Shown in pieces: positions 36,030 through 42,577 of a stretch of DNA of 64,000 nucleotides. Under the pieces are notes generated by a model, which was not told the DNA's origin, did no database searches, and worked only from the letters and a program-made list of their open reading frames with translations. The translations under genes and the position numbers were made by a program. The DNA comes from Hirschia maritima DSM 19733 (GTDB lineage: Bacteria > Pseudomonadota > Alphaproteobacteria > Caulobacterales > Hyphomonadaceae): positions 1 through 64,000 of the forward strand of contig NZ_KB899548.1 of assembly GCF_000378345.1 (NCBI RefSeq), in the 5' to 3' direction. How positions within the stretch are numbered: the stretch's first letter is position 1; each line of letters opens with the position of its first letter.

Positions 36030-37865
36030 ATGGGCGATAAACCACAAAATGATATTGCAACACGAGTAGAAACAATCGGTTCCTTGATGGGACGCCGACT
36101 ATTTCAACCTGCGAGCATTCAGCGAGATTTTAAGTGGGAAGCGGCCAACTGTGTCGCTTTGTTTGAGGATATCTATCGTGTTTTTTCCGCGCATTATGCT
36201 GGAAATAACGAAGAGGAAGATGATCAAGCAATCCCGATTCCTTCAAGTGATGAGTTAATTGATGCTGATCTATCAGGTGTAGCTCCACCCATTGATATGG
36301 AGATAGAAGGACCGCCCAATGCTTATCTTTTGGGACCAATGTATTTGGCACCACCTAAAAATGGCATTAGCGAAGTTTATGATGGCCTTCAACGTCTCAC
36401 CAGTTTGACAATTCTCATCTCGGTATTGAGAGACAGAATTTCACTTGTATCTAAAGAGTGGGGTGATTGGCTTCACACTTTTGTCGAAGATGAAAAATGG
36501 GGATACCGATTAACGTATCCCACTAAAAGCCACAAAGAAACAGGAACAGCGCGTTGGCTTTCGGAAATGGCGCAACGTCGAGGCGAGAGCATCAAAGCAC
36601 GGCGCAACCTTGAATCGAAAACGCCTCGTGGCCGTGTCACACGGGCGATTAGAGAGTTTCGTCGTTTAACGCAGGATATGAGCCCATCAGAACTTACATC
36701 TTTTGCTGAGTTTATGATGACGCGCGTGCGAATTGTTGCGATTCAAATCGCAGATATGCAATTAGCGAGACAAGCATTTGTGACATCCAACCAACGTGGT
36801 GTGGCTTTGTCCTCTGTTGATATCCTCAAAGGTGTTTTGATGGATATCGCGGGCAATGATGAACGTGCTGCTCAGGTAAAAGACACATGGGACCGTATTT
36901 CAACGACACCTGATCTTGAAAACTTTATGAGTGCTGTCGATTTCATTGAACGGCGCGCTCAACAGGGGCCATCTCACCTTGTTGAGTTTGGAGATTATCT
37001 GGCTGAAGCACGTCCGGGTTTTGCTATTTTGGAATGGATGGATCGTTTGGAAGCGTTGTCAGCTTCTTGGCGGACAATGAAATCTGCTCTGTTCGATCCT
37101 CAAAAAGATCCATTTGAAGGTGATTTGTGGCGTCTTGGTCTTCAAAATTGGAATGAGTGGAAACCGTTAGCGCTTCATTTCGTGTTTGTTTATCAGCAAG
37201 CCAAGAAAGAAAATAATAAGCGTCGGATGGATACAGTAATCAGTCGTTTCTCTGATTTCCATCGACGCGCCATGGCGATTTCGCTGGCAGGACTAGGGGC
37301 AAAAGCGCGTCACACCATTATCCGTAGAGCTATCGAACAATCTGAAGGTTTAACGGGAGACGGAAAAGCCAGAAACTGCATGTCTCTTTCTTATGGGGCT
37401 CTTCGATTGAAGCCAACTCAGAAAGATAGAGCCCAACGCCAATTATCAACAGGGTTTGATGATTATGAAGCGCGTGTTGCTTTTTTGCGTTGGTTGGAAA
37501 GCTTGCACTGGACGCGTGACGCGTTACCTGACTATGTGGCGGGAGGAACAGTCGAGCATGTTATGCCGACTTCGCCGGCACCTGAAGCTAAGCAGTGGGC
37601 TATAGATTTTCCAGATCCAGATGCTCGCCTCGGGCTATGCAATATGCTTGGTAACTTGATCCTGATCGATAAAGAAACCAATCACAAAGCAGGTTCGGGA
37701 GATTTTTCCGAGAAAGTTCAATTCTATCGTGAGATGAGACCTCCATTTGCGATGTCAGCAGAAGTAGCAGAATTAAGTAAATGGCGTCCACAAGACATTG
37801 TTGCTCGTTCAGAACGTATGAGAGAATTCGCTTTGGAACAACTCGATTGGGACAATAACTCTTAA
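36030..37865 (+). CDS. DUF262 and DUF1524 (GmrSD-like) protein
   Basis: A 611-residue protein. The N-terminal DUF262 domain has IQRDFKWEAANCVALFEDI (about residues 30-48) and the signature DGLQRLTSLTILISVL (about residue 118), normally DGQQRLTT and linked to NTP binding. The C-terminal DUF1524 domain has an HNH-like pair, VEHVMPTSP (about residue 508) and LGNLILIDKETNHKAG (about residue 540). This layout is that of GmrSD-type restriction enzymes, which attack modified phage DNA. It stands alone next to rpmH with no methylase. Defence is inferred from the family; the DGLQR variant should be noted. Confidence 0.88.
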   Translation: MGDKPQNDIATRVETIGSLMGRRLFQPASIQRDFKWEAANCVALFEDIYRVFSAHYAGNNEEEDDQAIPIPSSDELIDADLSGVAPPIDMEIEGPPNAYLLGPMYLAPPKNGISEVYDGLQRLTSLTILISVLRDRISLVSKEWGDWLHTFVEDEKWGYRLTYPTKSHKETGTARWLSEMAQRRGESIKARRNLESKTPRGRVTRAIREFRRLTQDMSPSELTSFAEFMMTRVRIVAIQIADMQLARQAFVTSNQRGVALSSVDILKGVLMDIAGNDERAAQVKDTWDRISTTPDLENFMSAVDFIERRAQQGPSHLVEFGDYLAEARPGFAILEWMDRLEALSASWRTMKSALFDPQKDPFEGDLWRLGLQNWNEWKPLALHFVFVYQQAKKENNKRRMDTVISRFSDFHRRAMAISLAGLGAKARHTIIRRAIEQSEGLTGDGKARNCMSLSYGALRLKPTQKDRAQRQLSTGFDDYEARVAFLRWLESLHWTRDALPDYVAGGTVEHVMPTSPAPEAKQWAIDFPDPDARLGLCNMLGNLILIDKETNHKAGSGDFSEKVQFYREMRPPFAMSAEVAELSKWRPQDIVARSERMREFALEQLDWDNNS

Positions 37866-37975: not shown

Positions 37976-38758
37976 ATGACACGCTCCATATTTTCATTTT
38001 TGTTGCTAGTGCTGCAGACGATTGCTGTGCCGTCTGCATTGGCGCAAGCGCATGATGAATGGTCCTTCCTGTTAAGCAAATATGTTGAAGAGGGTGAAGA
38101 CGGGATCAATCGCGTGGATTATGCAGCTTTCAAACGCAATGATCATGATCGCCTGGAATTAAACCAATATATTCAGAAATTGATTGAAAGCGATGTGTAC
38201 ACCAATGGTTCAAAAGACGAAAAGTTTGTTGCTTGGGTAAACCTTTACAATGCTTTGACGGTAAACATTGTTGTCGAAAATTATCCAGTAAAGTCTATTC
38301 GAGACATTGGAGGCAACTTCGTTTTCAAAGGTCCTTGGAAGAAAAAGCTTGTCGAAATTGATGGTAAGAAGCTGAGTCTCGATGACATTGAGCACCGTAT
38401 TCTACGAAAAAAGTGGGACGAACCGAGAGTTCACTATGCTGTAAATTGTGCCTCAATTGGGTGTCCGAATTTGCAACCCAAAGCATGGGAAGTAGAAACA
38501 TTGGAATCTGATCTGAAGAAAGCAGCCATAGAATTCATTACTCATCCAAGAGGGGTTGAAGTGTTACCCGACGGCAGATTGCGAATCTCTAAAATTTATC
38601 GTTGGTTCAAAAAGGATTTTGGTGGTTCCCAAGTTGGGGTTGTCATGCATTTAATGAAAAATGCGCCTGCTGACCTTGCGTCCAATTTAACTGCTGAAAC
38701 AATGATAAAATCATATCGATATGATTGGTCACTCAATGATATTGGGTCTAAAAAATAA
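37976..38758 (+). CDS. Exported DUF547 protein
   Basis: A protein of about 260 residues. The frame is open from TTG 37949, but ATG 37976 follows GAAGGA at 8 bases and begins a signal peptide ending PSALAQA. The DUF547 signature is clear: FVAWVNLYNALTVNIVVENYPV (about residues 82-103) and HYAVNCASIGCPNLQPKAW (about residues 154-172). The function of this domain is unknown; the conserved Asn, Cys and His residues suggest a possible peptidase-like or transferase fold. First of four genes in one direction with short gaps. Confidence 0.88.
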   Translation: MTRSIFSFLLLVLQTIAVPSALAQAHDEWSFLLSKYVEEGEDGINRVDYAAFKRNDHDRLELNQYIQKLIESDVYTNGSKDEKFVAWVNLYNALTVNIVVENYPVKSIRDIGGNFVFKGPWKKKLVEIDGKKLSLDDIEHRILRKKWDEPRVHYAVNCASIGCPNLQPKAWEVETLESDLKKAAIEFITHPRGVEVLPDGRLRISKIYRWFKKDFGGSQVGVVMHLMKNAPADLASNLTAETMIKSYRYDWSLNDIGSKK

Positions 38759-38771
38759 AGGTGGAATCACG

Positions 38772-39530
38772 ATGGAAAATATAGAGAATTCAGGTGATGA
38801 GGCACCCGTCAAAAAGTCTAATATGTTTGTAAAGCTGTGGCCAATCTTTGCAATCATTGCCGCAGTCGTGGTTTTCATTTCAAATGGTTGGCATGAGGTT
38901 CTTACGCTCGAAACATTAAGAGAGCGAAGAGAAGTGCTGTTGGCATTTGTACAAGAAAACATGCTCATTGCAGTGCTTGCTTATATTGGAATTTACATCG
39001 TTGCTACTGTCGTGATGACACCGGGAGCAGGTGTGCTGACGATAGCTGGAGGGTTTCTGTTCGGTTTGGTAACTGGAAGCATATTGACAGTGATAGGAGC
39101 CACTTTGGGCGCTTCTACGTTATTCTTTGCGGCTAAATCTTCTGTTGGAAGCATTTTGCGTGAAAAAGCCGGTCCATTTGTCTCTAAGATGGAAGAAGGA
39201 TTCAAACAGGACGCTTGGTCCTATATGTTTGCCTTACGGTTTATCCCAGCAGTGCCTTATCCAGTGGCGAATATAGCTCCGGCAATTTTTGGTGCAAAAT
39301 ACTCACAATATGCAATCACAACGATGCTCGGCATCATTCCGGGTGTTATTGCTTACACGTGGATTGGGTCTGGTCTTGGGGCAACATTTGACGCTGGGGA
39401 GAACCCAGATTTAGCTGGAGTGGCTAAAAACCTTATTCCAGCATTGGTAGCGTTGGGTGTTGTCGCTTTGATACCTGTTGCATGGAAAAAATTTGGTCCT
39501 AAATCAGCTGTAACTGCTGATAGTGAATAG
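38772..39530 (+). CDS. TVP38/TMEM64 (VTT/DedA-like) membrane protein
   Basis: A 252-residue inner-membrane protein of the TVP38/VTT family. The longer frame overlaps the previous gene; ATG 38772 has AAAGGTGG upstream and is preferred. The VTT motifs are TPGAGVLTIAGGFLFG (about residues 86-101) and FALRFIPAVPYPVANIAPAIFG (about residues 152-173), with the F-x-x-R-x-x-P pattern. Some DedA/VTT proteins move phospholipids between leaflets or support the proton motive force. It lies between the DUF547 gene and the disulfide reductase gene, a recurring arrangement in proteobacteria as I recall it. Confidence 0.88.
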   Translation: MENIENSGDEAPVKKSNMFVKLWPIFAIIAAVVVFISNGWHEVLTLETLRERREVLLAFVQENMLIAVLAYIGIYIVATVVMTPGAGVLTIAGGFLFGLVTGSILTVIGATLGASTLFFAAKSSVGSILREKAGPFVSKMEEGFKQDAWSYMFALRFIPAVPYPVANIAPAIFGAKYSQYAITTMLGIIPGVIAYTWIGSGLGATFDAGENPDLAGVAKNLIPALVALGVVALIPVAWKKFGPKSAVTADSE

Positions 39531-39545
39531 AAGCTTCTGAGGAAA

Positions 39546-41021
39546 ATGAATATGAGTGAGACTTTGGAAGCTAATGCTTCAACTGAGAGCAAGAAAAAGC
39601 GTTTAAAAGCAGACTTGGTGGTCATTGGAGCAGGTGCAGGTGGACTATCTGCTGCTGCTGGGTGTGCGATGCTTGGCCTAAAAGTAGTTCTTTATGAAAA
39701 GGGCGAAATGGGCGGTGATTGTTTGAATTATGGGTGTGTGCCGTCTAAAGCCCTGATAGCAGCAGCAAAACAAGCACAAGCCTTTAGAGAGGCAGACAAA
39801 TTTGGGCTAACATCTGCTGACCCTGGAGTGGATTGGAAACGAGTTCAGGCACATGTGAAGGAAGCAATCGCTACAATCGAACCAAATGACAGTCAGGAAC
39901 GATTTGAGGGACTGGGTGTTACAGTTATTCGTGAGGAAGCGCATTTTGTAACAGAAAACGTAGTGGCCTCTGCTTCAACGCAAGTTGAAGGAAAACGTAT
40001 TATCATAGCCACTGGTTCTCGCGCATTTGTTCCTCCAATTGATGGATTGGAGGATACGCCATATCTCATCAATGAAACCCTCTTTGATGTTGAAGAATTG
40101 CCGGAACATTTAATCATACTTGGCGGCGGTCCGATCGGGATTGAAATGGCGCAAGCCTTCAAACGATTAGGGTCTAAAGTAACAGTTATCGAGCGTGCTA
40201 GAGCAATGGAACGCGCGGATGAAGAGCATGCAGCGATTGCAGTTGAAGAATTGAGAAAAGAAGGTGTTGAAATTCTCGAGCGCACAACAGCGACTGCTAC
40301 TTCTCAAACAGGTTCTGGCGTAAGGGTTGAAACCAAAACGGCTGATGGCGAAGTTGATGCCGTTACGGGATCGCACCTATTAGTCGCGACGGGGCGTGTA
40401 CCGGTTATTGAGAGCCTAGCTCTTGAAGCTGGTGGTGTGGATTTTGATCGTCATGGCGTAAAAACAAAACCAAATCTGCGTTCGGTATCGAATGGTCGTG
40501 TTTGGGCTTTGGGTGATGCTGCAGGACGTGGACAGTTCACTCACCTTGCTGGGTGGCATGCATCGGTATTTGTTAGAAACGCTCTGTTTAAATCCGCCGC
40601 TCGTGCGGATTCTCTTCCAACTCCTGCGGTGACGTATACATCTCCCGAGGTTGCACAAGTTGGAATTACCGAAAAACAAGCTCGCGAAGAACATGGAGAA
40701 AAGGTTCGTGTCTCTCACTTCGAGTTCAAAGAGAATGATCGCGCAATTGCAGAGAAAGACACGATAGGTGGCGCAAAGATAGTAACTTTGAAAAATGGAA
40801 CTGTGCTTGGTGTGTCCGTCGTGGGAGAGGGAGCAGGGGATATTATTCAGCTTGCGAGTGTTGCTATGTCCAACGGATTGAAAATTAGAGCGCTTACAAA
40901 TTTTATTTCACCATATCCAACTCGGGCAGAAATTTTGAAACGTGCCGCGTCAAAATGGTATGAGCCATTGGTATTCGGTAAAAAAGGTAAGTTCATGGTA
41001 AAGTTTTTGAAGAATTTTTAG
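39546..41021 (+). CDS. FAD-dependent pyridine nucleotide-disulfide oxidoreductase (MerA/Lpd-like)
   Basis: A 491-residue flavoprotein. FAD binding is at VVIGAGAGGLSAAAG (about residues 24-38), the redox-active Cys pair in GGDCLNYGCVPSKALI (about residues 57-72), NAD(P)H binding at LIILGGGPIGIEMAQAFKRLG and a C-terminal dimerisation domain with YTSPEVAQVGITEKQA. The C-terminal Cys pair of mercuric reductase and the His-Pro-Thr end of lipoamide dehydrogenase are both absent (the matching site reads ISPYPTRAEI). The substrate is therefore unknown. Starts 15 bases after the VTT protein gene. Confidence 0.9.
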   Translation: MNMSETLEANASTESKKKRLKADLVVIGAGAGGLSAAAGCAMLGLKVVLYEKGEMGGDCLNYGCVPSKALIAAAKQAQAFREADKFGLTSADPGVDWKRVQAHVKEAIATIEPNDSQERFEGLGVTVIREEAHFVTENVVASASTQVEGKRIIIATGSRAFVPPIDGLEDTPYLINETLFDVEELPEHLIILGGGPIGIEMAQAFKRLGSKVTVIERARAMERADEEHAAIAVEELRKEGVEILERTTATATSQTGSGVRVETKTADGEVDAVTGSHLLVATGRVPVIESLALEAGGVDFDRHGVKTKPNLRSVSNGRVWALGDAAGRGQFTHLAGWHASVFVRNALFKSAARADSLPTPAVTYTSPEVAQVGITEKQAREEHGEKVRVSHFEFKENDRAIAEKDTIGGAKIVTLKNGTVLGVSVVGEGAGDIIQLASVAMSNGLKIRALTNFISPYPTRAEILKRAASKWYEPLVFGKKGKFMVKFLKNF

Positions 41022-41032
41022 TTGAGCTTTAA

Positions 41033-42577
41033 TTGCTTCAGAGCAAACGTGGTTTAGTGAAACAAGAAATTGGTCTTCAAGGGACGGAGGATGCTCCGGT
41101 TGATCCTGATAGGCTTCACTCTGCGCAGGCGGATGTGAAGATGACGGGGCGTTTGCCCAATGTAAAAATTGGATTGATGGAGCGATTGTTGATTTTGACA
41201 GTCGCTTTTGTCCTTGTCGCGGAATTTCTGATTTTCCTTCCTTCAATCACCAAGTTTCGAAGCGACTGGTTTGCAGAACGTGTGCAAGCAGCTGAAATCG
41301 CGGCAACAGCGCTGGAAATTGCGCCGGATCGTAAAGTATCTCAGGAATTGAGCGCAAGATTATTGAACGAGACTCAATTGCTTGCTGTCGCCATGGGAGA
41401 TGAGGAGATGTGGGAGCAGGTGTTTAGTCCTCCCATGCCCATTGCTTCTATGCCAGTCACAATGGATTTGCGTGATGAAACTTGGTTTGACGCTTTCTTC
41501 TGTCTTTTTGCGCACGCAACGGCCAAAGACGGTCGCATTCTTCAAGTCATCTCTCATACTGATAGCGGGACGGAAGATTCATACATCGATATCATTGTGC
41601 CCGAAGAAGCATTGCGTTCTGATCTGCTTGAATACTCCATCAATATCCTTTTGATTTCTTTGCTTATCTCAGCGATCGTTGGATCGTTTATTGCGTGGTC
41701 ACTTTATCATTTGGTGGTGAAGCCTATGATGAAAATCACGAATGCTGTTGCTGATTTTGGTGAAGCTCCTGAAAGATTGGCGGCATTTAAACCGTCTGGG
41801 CGGGATGATGAAATTGGTAAAGCGGAACTTGCACTAGTAGATATGCAAAGTGCGGTTTCCAATTCTTTTCGCCAAAATAAGCGTCTTGCGGAACTGGGCG
41901 AGGCTGTAGCTAAAATTTCCCATGACCTTCGAAATTCATTATCGGTAGCGCGTCTGGCGTCTGACAGTTTGATGAGATCAGAAGACCCTCGTGTGCAATC
42001 TGCAGCACCAAGGCTGGAACGTGCCATAGAGCGTGCCATTGGGTTAGCAGAGGCAACGCTGCAATATGGCAAAGCTGATGCACCCAAGGCGCACATGGTC
42101 ACCGTAGAGCTTAGAAACATAGCTGAAGACGCTTTGTTGGAAGGTGTAGCAGCTAATCCTGAGGTTGATTGGCTTAATGATGTTGATGAAGAAGTGCAGG
42201 TGTATGCAGATCCTGAAATGCTTCATCGCTTGCTTGCAAACTTAGTTCGCAATGCTGGACAAGCTATTGCACAGCAGGAAGCAGACGCAGAGCCAGGGTT
42301 AATACGCATTGGCGCGGAAATCATTGATGATACTTGGATACAGATATTGGTCGAAGATAATGGACCTGGCGTGCCTGAGAAGGTGAAAACAAAAATTTTT
42401 CAACCATTCTCAACTTCAGAAAATAAAGGCGGTAGCGGATTGGGGTTGGCAATCACGCGAGAGTTAGCTTTGGCAATGGGCGGTGAAGTTGCGCTTGATG
42501 AAACTGTTGAAAAAGGTGCGGTTTTCAAACTGAAACTTCAACTCGCCGGAGTAAGCTCCGGCGAGATTTCCAGTTAG
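41033..42577 (+). CDS. Orphan sensor histidine kinase
   Basis: A membrane kinase of about 514 residues. Two membrane helices (about residues 48-68 and 205-225) flank a periplasmic sensor region, followed by a HAMP domain. The H-box is ISHDLRNSLSVARLASD with His near residue 301, the N-box is NLVRNAGQAI, G1 is VEDNGPGVP and G2 is GGSGLGLAITREL, all intact. No response regulator is nearby. The start is uncertain: TTG 41033 is the longest, with GTG 41057 and ATG 41141 as alternatives. It follows the disulfide reductase by 11 bases and may read out the same membrane or redox process. Confidence 0.87.
   Translation: MLQSKRGLVKQEIGLQGTEDAPVDPDRLHSAQADVKMTGRLPNVKIGLMERLLILTVAFVLVAEFLIFLPSITKFRSDWFAERVQAAEIAATALEIAPDRKVSQELSARLLNETQLLAVAMGDEEMWEQVFSPPMPIASMPVTMDLRDETWFDAFFCLFAHATAKDGRILQVISHTDSGTEDSYIDIIVPEEALRSDLLEYSINILLISLLISAIVGSFIAWSLYHLVVKPMMKITNAVADFGEAPERLAAFKPSGRDDEIGKAELALVDMQSAVSNSFRQNKRLAELGEAVAKISHDLRNSLSVARLASDSLMRSEDPRVQSAAPRLERAIERAIGLAEATLQYGKADAPKAHMVTVELRNIAEDALLEGVAANPEVDWLNDVDEEVQVYADPEMLHRLLANLVRNAGQAIAQQEADAEPGLIRIGAEIIDDTWIQILVEDNGPGVPEKVKTKIFQPFSTSENKGGSGLGLAITRELALAMGGEVALDETVEKGAVFKLKLQLAGVSSGEISS
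42542..42565. terminator. Perfect hairpin at the kinase 3' end, between convergent genes
   Basis: A 10-bp perfect stem, CTCGCCGGAG with CTCCGGCGAG, and a 4-base loop, lying within the last codons of the histidine kinase gene and 14 bases before the ggt stop. There is no strong T-tract on either strand, so its terminator role is uncertain. Confidence 0.5.

What the first reader, a model, noticed from the sequence alone, without database searches (positions are those of the whole stretch)
37976..42577. Four-gene envelope-redox run: DUF547, TVP38/VTT, FAD disulfide reductase, orphan kinase
Gaps are 11-15 bases, so the genes probably form one transcript. A periplasmic DUF547 protein, a membrane VTT lipid scramblase-like protein and a Cys-pair flavoprotein lacking both the MerA and the Lpd C-terminal active-site features suggest a still unnamed pathway, with a membrane kinase that may report on it.
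Basis: partly seen in the sequence, partly recalled or inferred. Interest (0 to 1): 0.5.

Follow-up and report, generated by a model that had tools for sequence, protein, structure and literature searches.

The report
Conserved membrane-redox gene cluster in Alphaproteobacteria
Four neighbouring genes for an apparently exported protein, a membrane protein related to lipid movers, a mercury-reductase-like flavoenzyme and a sensor kinase form a recurring set in many related bacteria; in some others the enzyme and the membrane protein are one fused protein, but what they act on is still unknown.

Summary
The four genes are real and lie as described (37976-42577; gaps 13, 15, 11 bases). In wider regions of relatives, 6 of 38 had DUF547 without VTT or reductase. 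Elsewhere the set is rearranged, or VTT and reductase are one protein. The reductase keeps MerA's Tyr where Lpd has His (133 of 134) but lacks MerA's Cys pair. DUF547 has an invariant CX4C pair; VTT has no conserved Cys. The kinase is a looser partner: adjacent in 78 of 111 genomes compared, present without a reductase match in 24 of 176. Reductases without the kinase often neighbour TIGR04282/TIGR04283 glycosyltransferases, radical-SAM genes or ArsS (18 of 48). ArsS-based arsenosugar synthesis is unlikely here (0 of 61 relatives; 1 of 130 class genomes). The VTT-reductase fusion is already in print (Todor 2023). Best reading: a membrane-docked flavin reductase plus transporter plus exported CX4C partner; substrate unknown. 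Envelope-stress and kinase-reporter claims remain untested.

The parts
37976..38758 (+). DUF547 protein, 260 aa, signal-like N-terminus (read by eye); Cys158-x4-Cys163
   Evidence: Pfam PF04784 88 bits; both Cys kept in 112 of 112 distinct relatives aligned; AlphaFold model mean pLDDT 91.1
38772..39530 (+). VTT (TVP38-like) membrane protein, 252 aa, without Cys
   Evidence: Pfam PF09335 72.8 bits; alignment A3; of 111 relatives 70 have no Cys, and no column has Cys in more than 12%
39546..41021 (+). FAD pyridine-nucleotide disulfide reductase, 491 aa; Cys59-x4-Cys64; Tyr457 in place of the Lpd/GR His; no C-terminal Cys pair
   Evidence: Pfam; below the cut-off of each of the 25 NCBIfam models shown; best solved relative MerA 5x1y; motifs over 134 relatives
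41033..42577 (+). Membrane sensor histidine kinase, up to 514 aa (TTG start as called; start uncertain)
   Evidence: HATPase_c and HisKA; alignment A4

Best explanation
The run holds a portable module (VTT + reductase, often with DUF547) plus a locally resident kinase. Shown by sequence: the reductase is a MerA-like flavin disulfide reductase with one CX4C pair and a MerA-type Tyr; VTT and reductase are neighbours in many lineages and one polypeptide in others; DUF547 has an invariant CX4C pair. Inferred: the reductase docks on the cytoplasmic face of VTT and uses NAD(P)H to reduce a thiophilic, disulfide- or sugar-linked small molecule; VTT moves the substrate or product, or a lipid carrying it, across the inner membrane; exported DUF547 acts on it in the periplasm. 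The kinase may tune the cluster but is not an obligate part.
For: Trio order in 27 of the 29 best-scoring relative loci. Among 164 distinct loci, not randomly drawn: 86 with reductase and kinase (79 with VTT, 63 with DUF547); 41 with reductase, no kinase (28 VTT, 17 DUF547); 7 fused (2 with DUF547). Three arrangements: D-V-R-H; R-V-D in L166, L175, L184, L202, L215, L221; fused V-R. Median gaps -4, -1 and 15 bases (starts taken as the first possible start codon, so overlaps are overstated; duplicates kept). The fusion is in print (PMC10127716, section 7). CX4C in 134 of 134 reductases, Tyr in 133 of 134. TIGR04282-, TIGR04283-, radical-SAM- or ArsS-like neighbours at 18 of 48 reductase loci without kinase, 6 parsimony changes on the 134-tip tree. 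With one genome per family, TIGR04283 is in 43 of 66 genomes with the reductase and 11 of 71 without.
Against: No substrate, docking or transport was shown. None of the 86 reductase+kinase loci, the window's kind, has those neighbours. TIGR04283 tracks the kinase as well as the reductase (40 of 58 vs 14 of 79); among genomes without the kinase its link to the reductase is not significant (5 of 18 vs 8 of 55, p 0.29), and families are still related by descent. Six of 38 wider relative regions have DUF547 without VTT or reductase. VTT stands beside the kinase without the reductase in 5 of 20 regions, so it can work without it.
Confidence: 0.45

Rival explanations
1. Arsenosugar or arsenolipid pathway: the reductase reduces methylated arsenicals for ArsS, and VTT flips a lipid form.
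For: ArsS-type genes beside the reductase in L129-L131 and near fused L136 (one, L130, scanned: TIGR04167 402 bits against cut-off 300; the others by cluster and profile); TIGR04282/TIGR04283 bear the library name 'arsenosugar biosynthesis glycosyltransferase'; two TIGR04283 genes in the own genome.
Against: The ArsS domain DUF3641 is in 0 of 61 relatives including the own genome, and TIGR04167 in 1 of 130 class genomes, while 206 of 385 class genomes have the reductase. No arsenic genes were recognised in the window cluster.
Confidence: 0.1
2. Envelope lipid/redox homeostasis: VTT is a phospholipid scramblase, the reductase keeps it or a membrane pool reduced, and the kinase senses the state.
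For: Todor et al. 2023 suggest phospholipid scrambling for COG0398 proteins, link them to aerobic metabolism and report them essential in Caulobacter crescentus and Dinoroseobacter shibae (section 7 read); VTT stays beside the kinase without the reductase in L243, L244, L245, L252 and L259.
Against: It leaves the recurrent glycosyltransferase and radical-SAM neighbours unexplained; lone kinases without VTT or reductase occur.
Confidence: 0.25
3. Transmembrane thiol relay (CcdA/DsbD-like): electrons pass from the reductase through VTT to the DUF547 CX4C pair.
For: CX4C pairs invariant in reductase and DUF547.
Against: VTT has no conserved Cys; 70 of 111 relatives have none at all.
Confidence: 0.07
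4. Inherited synteny only: unrelated genes that stayed together near yidC.
For: Similar yidC/rnpA surroundings at many kinase-type loci; lone kinases often stay there.
Against: VTT, reductase and DUF547 are together in another order elsewhere, and VTT-reductase fusions exist.
Confidence: 0.12

Closest known systems
COG0398 DedA/TVP38 protein fused to a pyridine nucleotide-disulfide oxidoreductase (Todor et al. 2023, PMC10127716)
   Same: Same domains, PF09335 with PF07992/PF02852; the authors call these the most common COG0398 fusions
   Different: In the window they are separate genes with DUF547 and a kinase added; the sections (6, 7) and passages I saw mention neither
MerA mercuric reductase (5x1y, 1zk7)
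   Same: CX4C pair, same domains, Tyr in the place of the Lpd His; best solved-sequence match
   Different: No C-terminal Cys pair; no separate N-terminal metal-binding domain among the Pfam matches; TIGR02053 348.1 against cut-off 454.45
Dihydrolipoyl dehydrogenase / glutathione reductase
   Same: Same domain architecture and CX4C
   Different: Tyr instead of the His of HPT..E; TIGR01350 341 against cut-off 408.8. The catalytic role of that His is recalled.
E. coli ydjXYZ-ynjABCDEF region
   Same: TVP38-type proteins beside a YnjBCD ABC transporter and a CDP-alcohol phosphatidyltransferase-domain protein; L137 has fused VTT-reductase, DUF547, relatives of these transporter genes (by cluster, representatives scanned) and a CDP-alcohol phosphatidyltransferase
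   Different: The annotation of the stretch shown has no DUF547 and no such reductase; compared by annotation, not by tree

Membership tests
MerA mercuric reductase | CX4C redox pair | tested here: met
   C59/C64 invariant in A1; motif in 134 of 134
MerA mercuric reductase | C-terminal Cys pair | tested here: not met
   No CC or CxC in the last 25 residues of 134 of 134
MerA mercuric reductase | NCBIfam TIGR02053 cut-off | tested here: not met
   348.1 vs 454.45
Lpd/GR class I disulfide reductase | C-terminal His (HPT..E) | tested here: not met
   Tyr457; Tyr in 133 and Phe in 1 of 134
VTT domain family | PF09335 over cut-off | tested here: met
   72.8 vs 33.9
UptA undecaprenyl-phosphate transporter | NF052604 cut-off | tested here: not met
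   19.7 vs 250
DUF547 | PF04784 over cut-off | tested here: met
   88 vs 27
Two-component sensor kinase | HisKA and HATPase_c | tested here: met
Two-component sensor kinase | cognate response regulator | tested here: inconclusive
   None next to it in the window; 12 downstream neighbours from other loci scanned, none a regulator, two without any family; the genome was not searched for partners
ArsS arsenosugar pathway | ArsS in the same genome | tested here: not met
   Own genome without match for PF12345 and TIGR04167
VTT transporter or scramblase | movement of a lipid or other substrate | not testable with these tools
   needs biochemistry

The most novel reading that the evidence does not exclude
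The cluster is the membrane end of a widespread, undescribed pathway for a sugar-linked or metalloid/sulfur-containing small molecule: TIGR04282/TIGR04283 glycosyltransferases and a radical-SAM enzyme build it, a VTT protein coupled to a MerA-like flavoenzyme moves and reduces it, and DUF547 is a periplasmic CX4C enzyme. In the window's lineage the biosynthetic genes would lie elsewhere in the genome.
Probability: 0.15. Interest if true: 0.75.

Novelty: new variant of a known kind. Interest (0 to 1): 0.42.

Why it matters
COG0398 proteins are the bacterial relatives of TMEM41B and VMP1 and are reported essential in two Alphaproteobacteria, with unknown function (PMC10127716, section 7). A conserved reductase and an exported DUF547 partner give testable handles on that function, and the motifs point to MerA-like chemistry without mercury's Cys pair.

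Tried and rejected
ArsS-based arsenosugar synthesis: unlikely in this lineage. Thiol relay through VTT: disfavoured. Kinase as dedicated reporter: weakened. Function of DUF547 from its fold: no Foldseek match with E of 0.001 or less (best 0.85); the VIA-align rows reached Z 5.2 at most, many of them 14-3-3 chains, taken as a common helical arrangement; this does not show a new fold. Plasmid records: one hit at E 1e-80 or better, Roseomonas, 47.5%. Twenty TIGR04283 loci (19 of other genomes, one of the own): TIGR04282-like neighbour in 15 of 20, among housekeeping genes and a radical-SAM gene, no shared partner of the window cluster recognised.

Paper searches: searches found none; others (21 papers; 3; 5; 20 of 32 listed; 10 of 85 listed; 2) gave listings whose titles and abstract starts did not show this cluster. 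Passages seen: PMC3836016, PMC7818093, PMC8679861, PMC8801600, PMC10127716 (sections 6 and 7 in 67, 68). Only open-licence PMC papers are covered.

Controls and limits: PhaC against the reductase gave odds ratio 2.1 (p 0.051), but PhaC also tracks TIGR04283 (3.3) and the kinase (4.1); reductase-TIGR04283 was 10.3, reductase-kinase 13.8 (128 genomes; two of the 130 searched were left out). 'One genome per family' rests on the order of handles and family numbers (G061-G197). Loci were chosen by DUF547 or reductase matches, so locus counts are not frequencies. 180 loci became 164 after removing duplicates and loci without a core gene. 14 of 206 reductase genomes with E above 1e-140 were left out of the strong set. 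Adjacency used only the 147 and 150 genomes whose positions were listed; contig breaks can hide adjacency. Neighbour profiles were built from 3-6 sequences each; of them ArsS, TIGR04282 and TIGR04283 had one representative over the NCBIfam cut-off, the radical-SAM group none. Three of the 8 hits at loci without reductase score only 49-103 bits. Labels such as argB, engB and tam in the scripts were recognised by eye or by close scores; yidC, rnpA, ggt and the S58 peptidase were checked. The residue patterns used in scripts are recalled.

Full report
Observation. Pfam assigns DUF547, VTT, a pyridine-nucleotide disulfide reductase and a HisKA/HATPase kinase, all over cut-off. None of the 25 NCBIfam models shown for the reductase reaches its cut-off: best 427.8 bits against 620 for an FAD-containing oxidoreductase subfamily, MerA 348.1 against 454.45, lipoamide dehydrogenase 341 against 408.8.

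Conservation. DUF547 matches occur in 44 of 61 genomes, own included. Of the 29 relative loci fetched with that search, the best-scoring ones, 27 hold DUF547-VTT-reductase in this order and two are cut by contig ends. Of 38 wider regions around DUF547 in relatives, 24 hold all four genes, 6 the trio without kinase, 1 all but VTT, 1 VTT and reductase without a called DUF547, and 6 DUF547 alone (with the ORF caller). yidC and rnpA lie upstream. In 385 genomes of the class 206 have the reductase at E 1e-110 or better and 176 the kinase at 1e-90 or better; in a phylum sample the reductase profile matched 174 of 398 genomes, fused and other forms included. Eighty loci with record titles, found through DUF547, include Hyphomonas, Ponticaulis, Henriciella, Stappia, Parvibaculum and Roseomonas. 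In six loci of the Roseomonas-type clade (L166, L175, L184, L202, L215, L221) the order is reductase-VTT-DUF547, and no kinase of this kind was found in the fetched stretch. In seven loci, six from other classes of the phylum and one (L141) from this class, VTT and reductase are one protein of 712-748 aa; two of these have DUF547 next (L137, L138). This fusion type is in print: Todor et al. 2023 (PMC10127716, section 7).

Context. Among 164 distinct loci, none of 86 reductase+kinase loci has TIGR04282-, TIGR04283-, radical-SAM- or ArsS-like neighbours (one has a YnjB-type gene); 15 of 41 reductase loci without kinase, 3 of 7 fused and 8 of 30 without reductase do, three of the last 8 on weak scores. 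On a tree of 134 reductases this context changes six times and kinase presence sixteen times by parsimony. The tree was rooted at its midpoint, and the fused forms are not one clade. Nine Roseomonas-type reductases form a clade (support 1.0) inside a group with three kinase-type ones (support 0.92), so one enzyme family serves both contexts. L215 also carries a phosphonate-type binding protein and a metallophosphatase.

Genome-wide co-occurrence. TIGR04283 (E 1e-30 or better in 146 of 385 genomes, over its cut-off in 125) is present in 121 of 192 genomes with a strong reductase match and 25 of 193 others. With one genome per family it is 43 of 66 against 11 of 71, p 3e-9; but for the kinase it is equally 40 of 58 against 14 of 79. 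PhaC as control gives odds ratio 2.1 with the reductase against 10.3 for TIGR04283, yet 4.1 with the kinase. Among kinase-bearing genomes the reductase-TIGR04283 link is 36 of 45 against 2 of 10; without the kinase it is not significant, 5 of 18 against 8 of 55. The link is therefore suggestive, not settled. ArsS is absent by DUF3641 from 61 of 61 relatives and present by TIGR04167 in 1 of 130 class genomes, so the library name 'arsenosugar' should not be carried over to this lineage.

Active-site features. CX4C is in 134 of 134 reductases and a C-terminal Cys pair in none; the Lpd His position holds Tyr in 133 and Phe in 1. DUF547 Cys158 and Cys163 are in 112 of 112 relatives. VTT has no conserved Cys; 70 of 111 have none. 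The DUF547 model is confident (mean pLDDT 91.1).

Kinase. Of 111 genomes with both positions listed, kinase and reductase are adjacent in 78, within 4 kb in 2, farther apart on one contig in 5 and on different contigs in 26. Twenty-four kinase-bearing genomes have no reductase match. Around 20 kinases chosen as lone or non-adjacent, my reading of the maps finds yidC and/or rnpA in 12 and other genes of that neighbourhood in one more (L245); VTT stands beside the kinase without the reductase in 5 (L243, L244, L245, L252, L259); one region (L262) did hold VTT-reductase-kinase. The kinase thus looks like an old resident of this locus. Twelve downstream neighbours scanned were not response regulators; two of them matched no family.

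Mechanism. Shown: a conserved module with a MerA-like reductase, a VTT protein without conserved Cys and a CX4C protein with a signal-like N-terminus. Inferred: docking of reductase and VTT (from fusions), reduction of a thiophilic, disulfide or sugar-linked substrate, movement across the membrane and a periplasmic step by DUF547. The substrate is unknown. The report that COG0398 proteins are essential in Caulobacter and Dinoroseobacter may concern this VTT, but I could not check which gene is meant.

Noticed in passing
36030-37865: GmrSD-type (type IV restriction-like) gene directly upstream on the same strand; in the maps the same cluster appears at this place also in the same-genus locus L042.
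   Followed up: no
L080 7666-12718 (own genome, C2): A second DUF547, about 47% identical to the window's, lies with a TonB-dependent receptor, a polyketide-cyclase-like protein, a TIGR04283 glycosyltransferase and a MerC-domain protein.
   Followed up: partly
L223 6470-10368 (own genome, C5): A TIGR04283 gene and a TIGR04282-like gene beside a radical-SAM gene and a DNA methylase gene; such a pair is in 15 of 20 regions mapped.
   Followed up: partly
L215 6932-17643: Roseomonas locus: TIGR04282-like gene, reductase, VTT, DUF547, TIGR04283-like gene, radical SAM, phosphonate-type binding protein and metallophosphatase; perhaps a fuller version of the pathway.
   Followed up: partly
L137 8173-15521: Fused VTT-reductase and DUF547 are followed by YnjBCD-type transporter genes and a CDP-alcohol phosphatidyltransferase, resembling the E. 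coli ydjXYZ-ynjABCDEF region.
   Followed up: partly
L243, L244, L245, L252, L259: VTT and the kinase are adjacent where the reductase is missing or elsewhere, hinting at a closer VTT-kinase tie.
   Followed up: no
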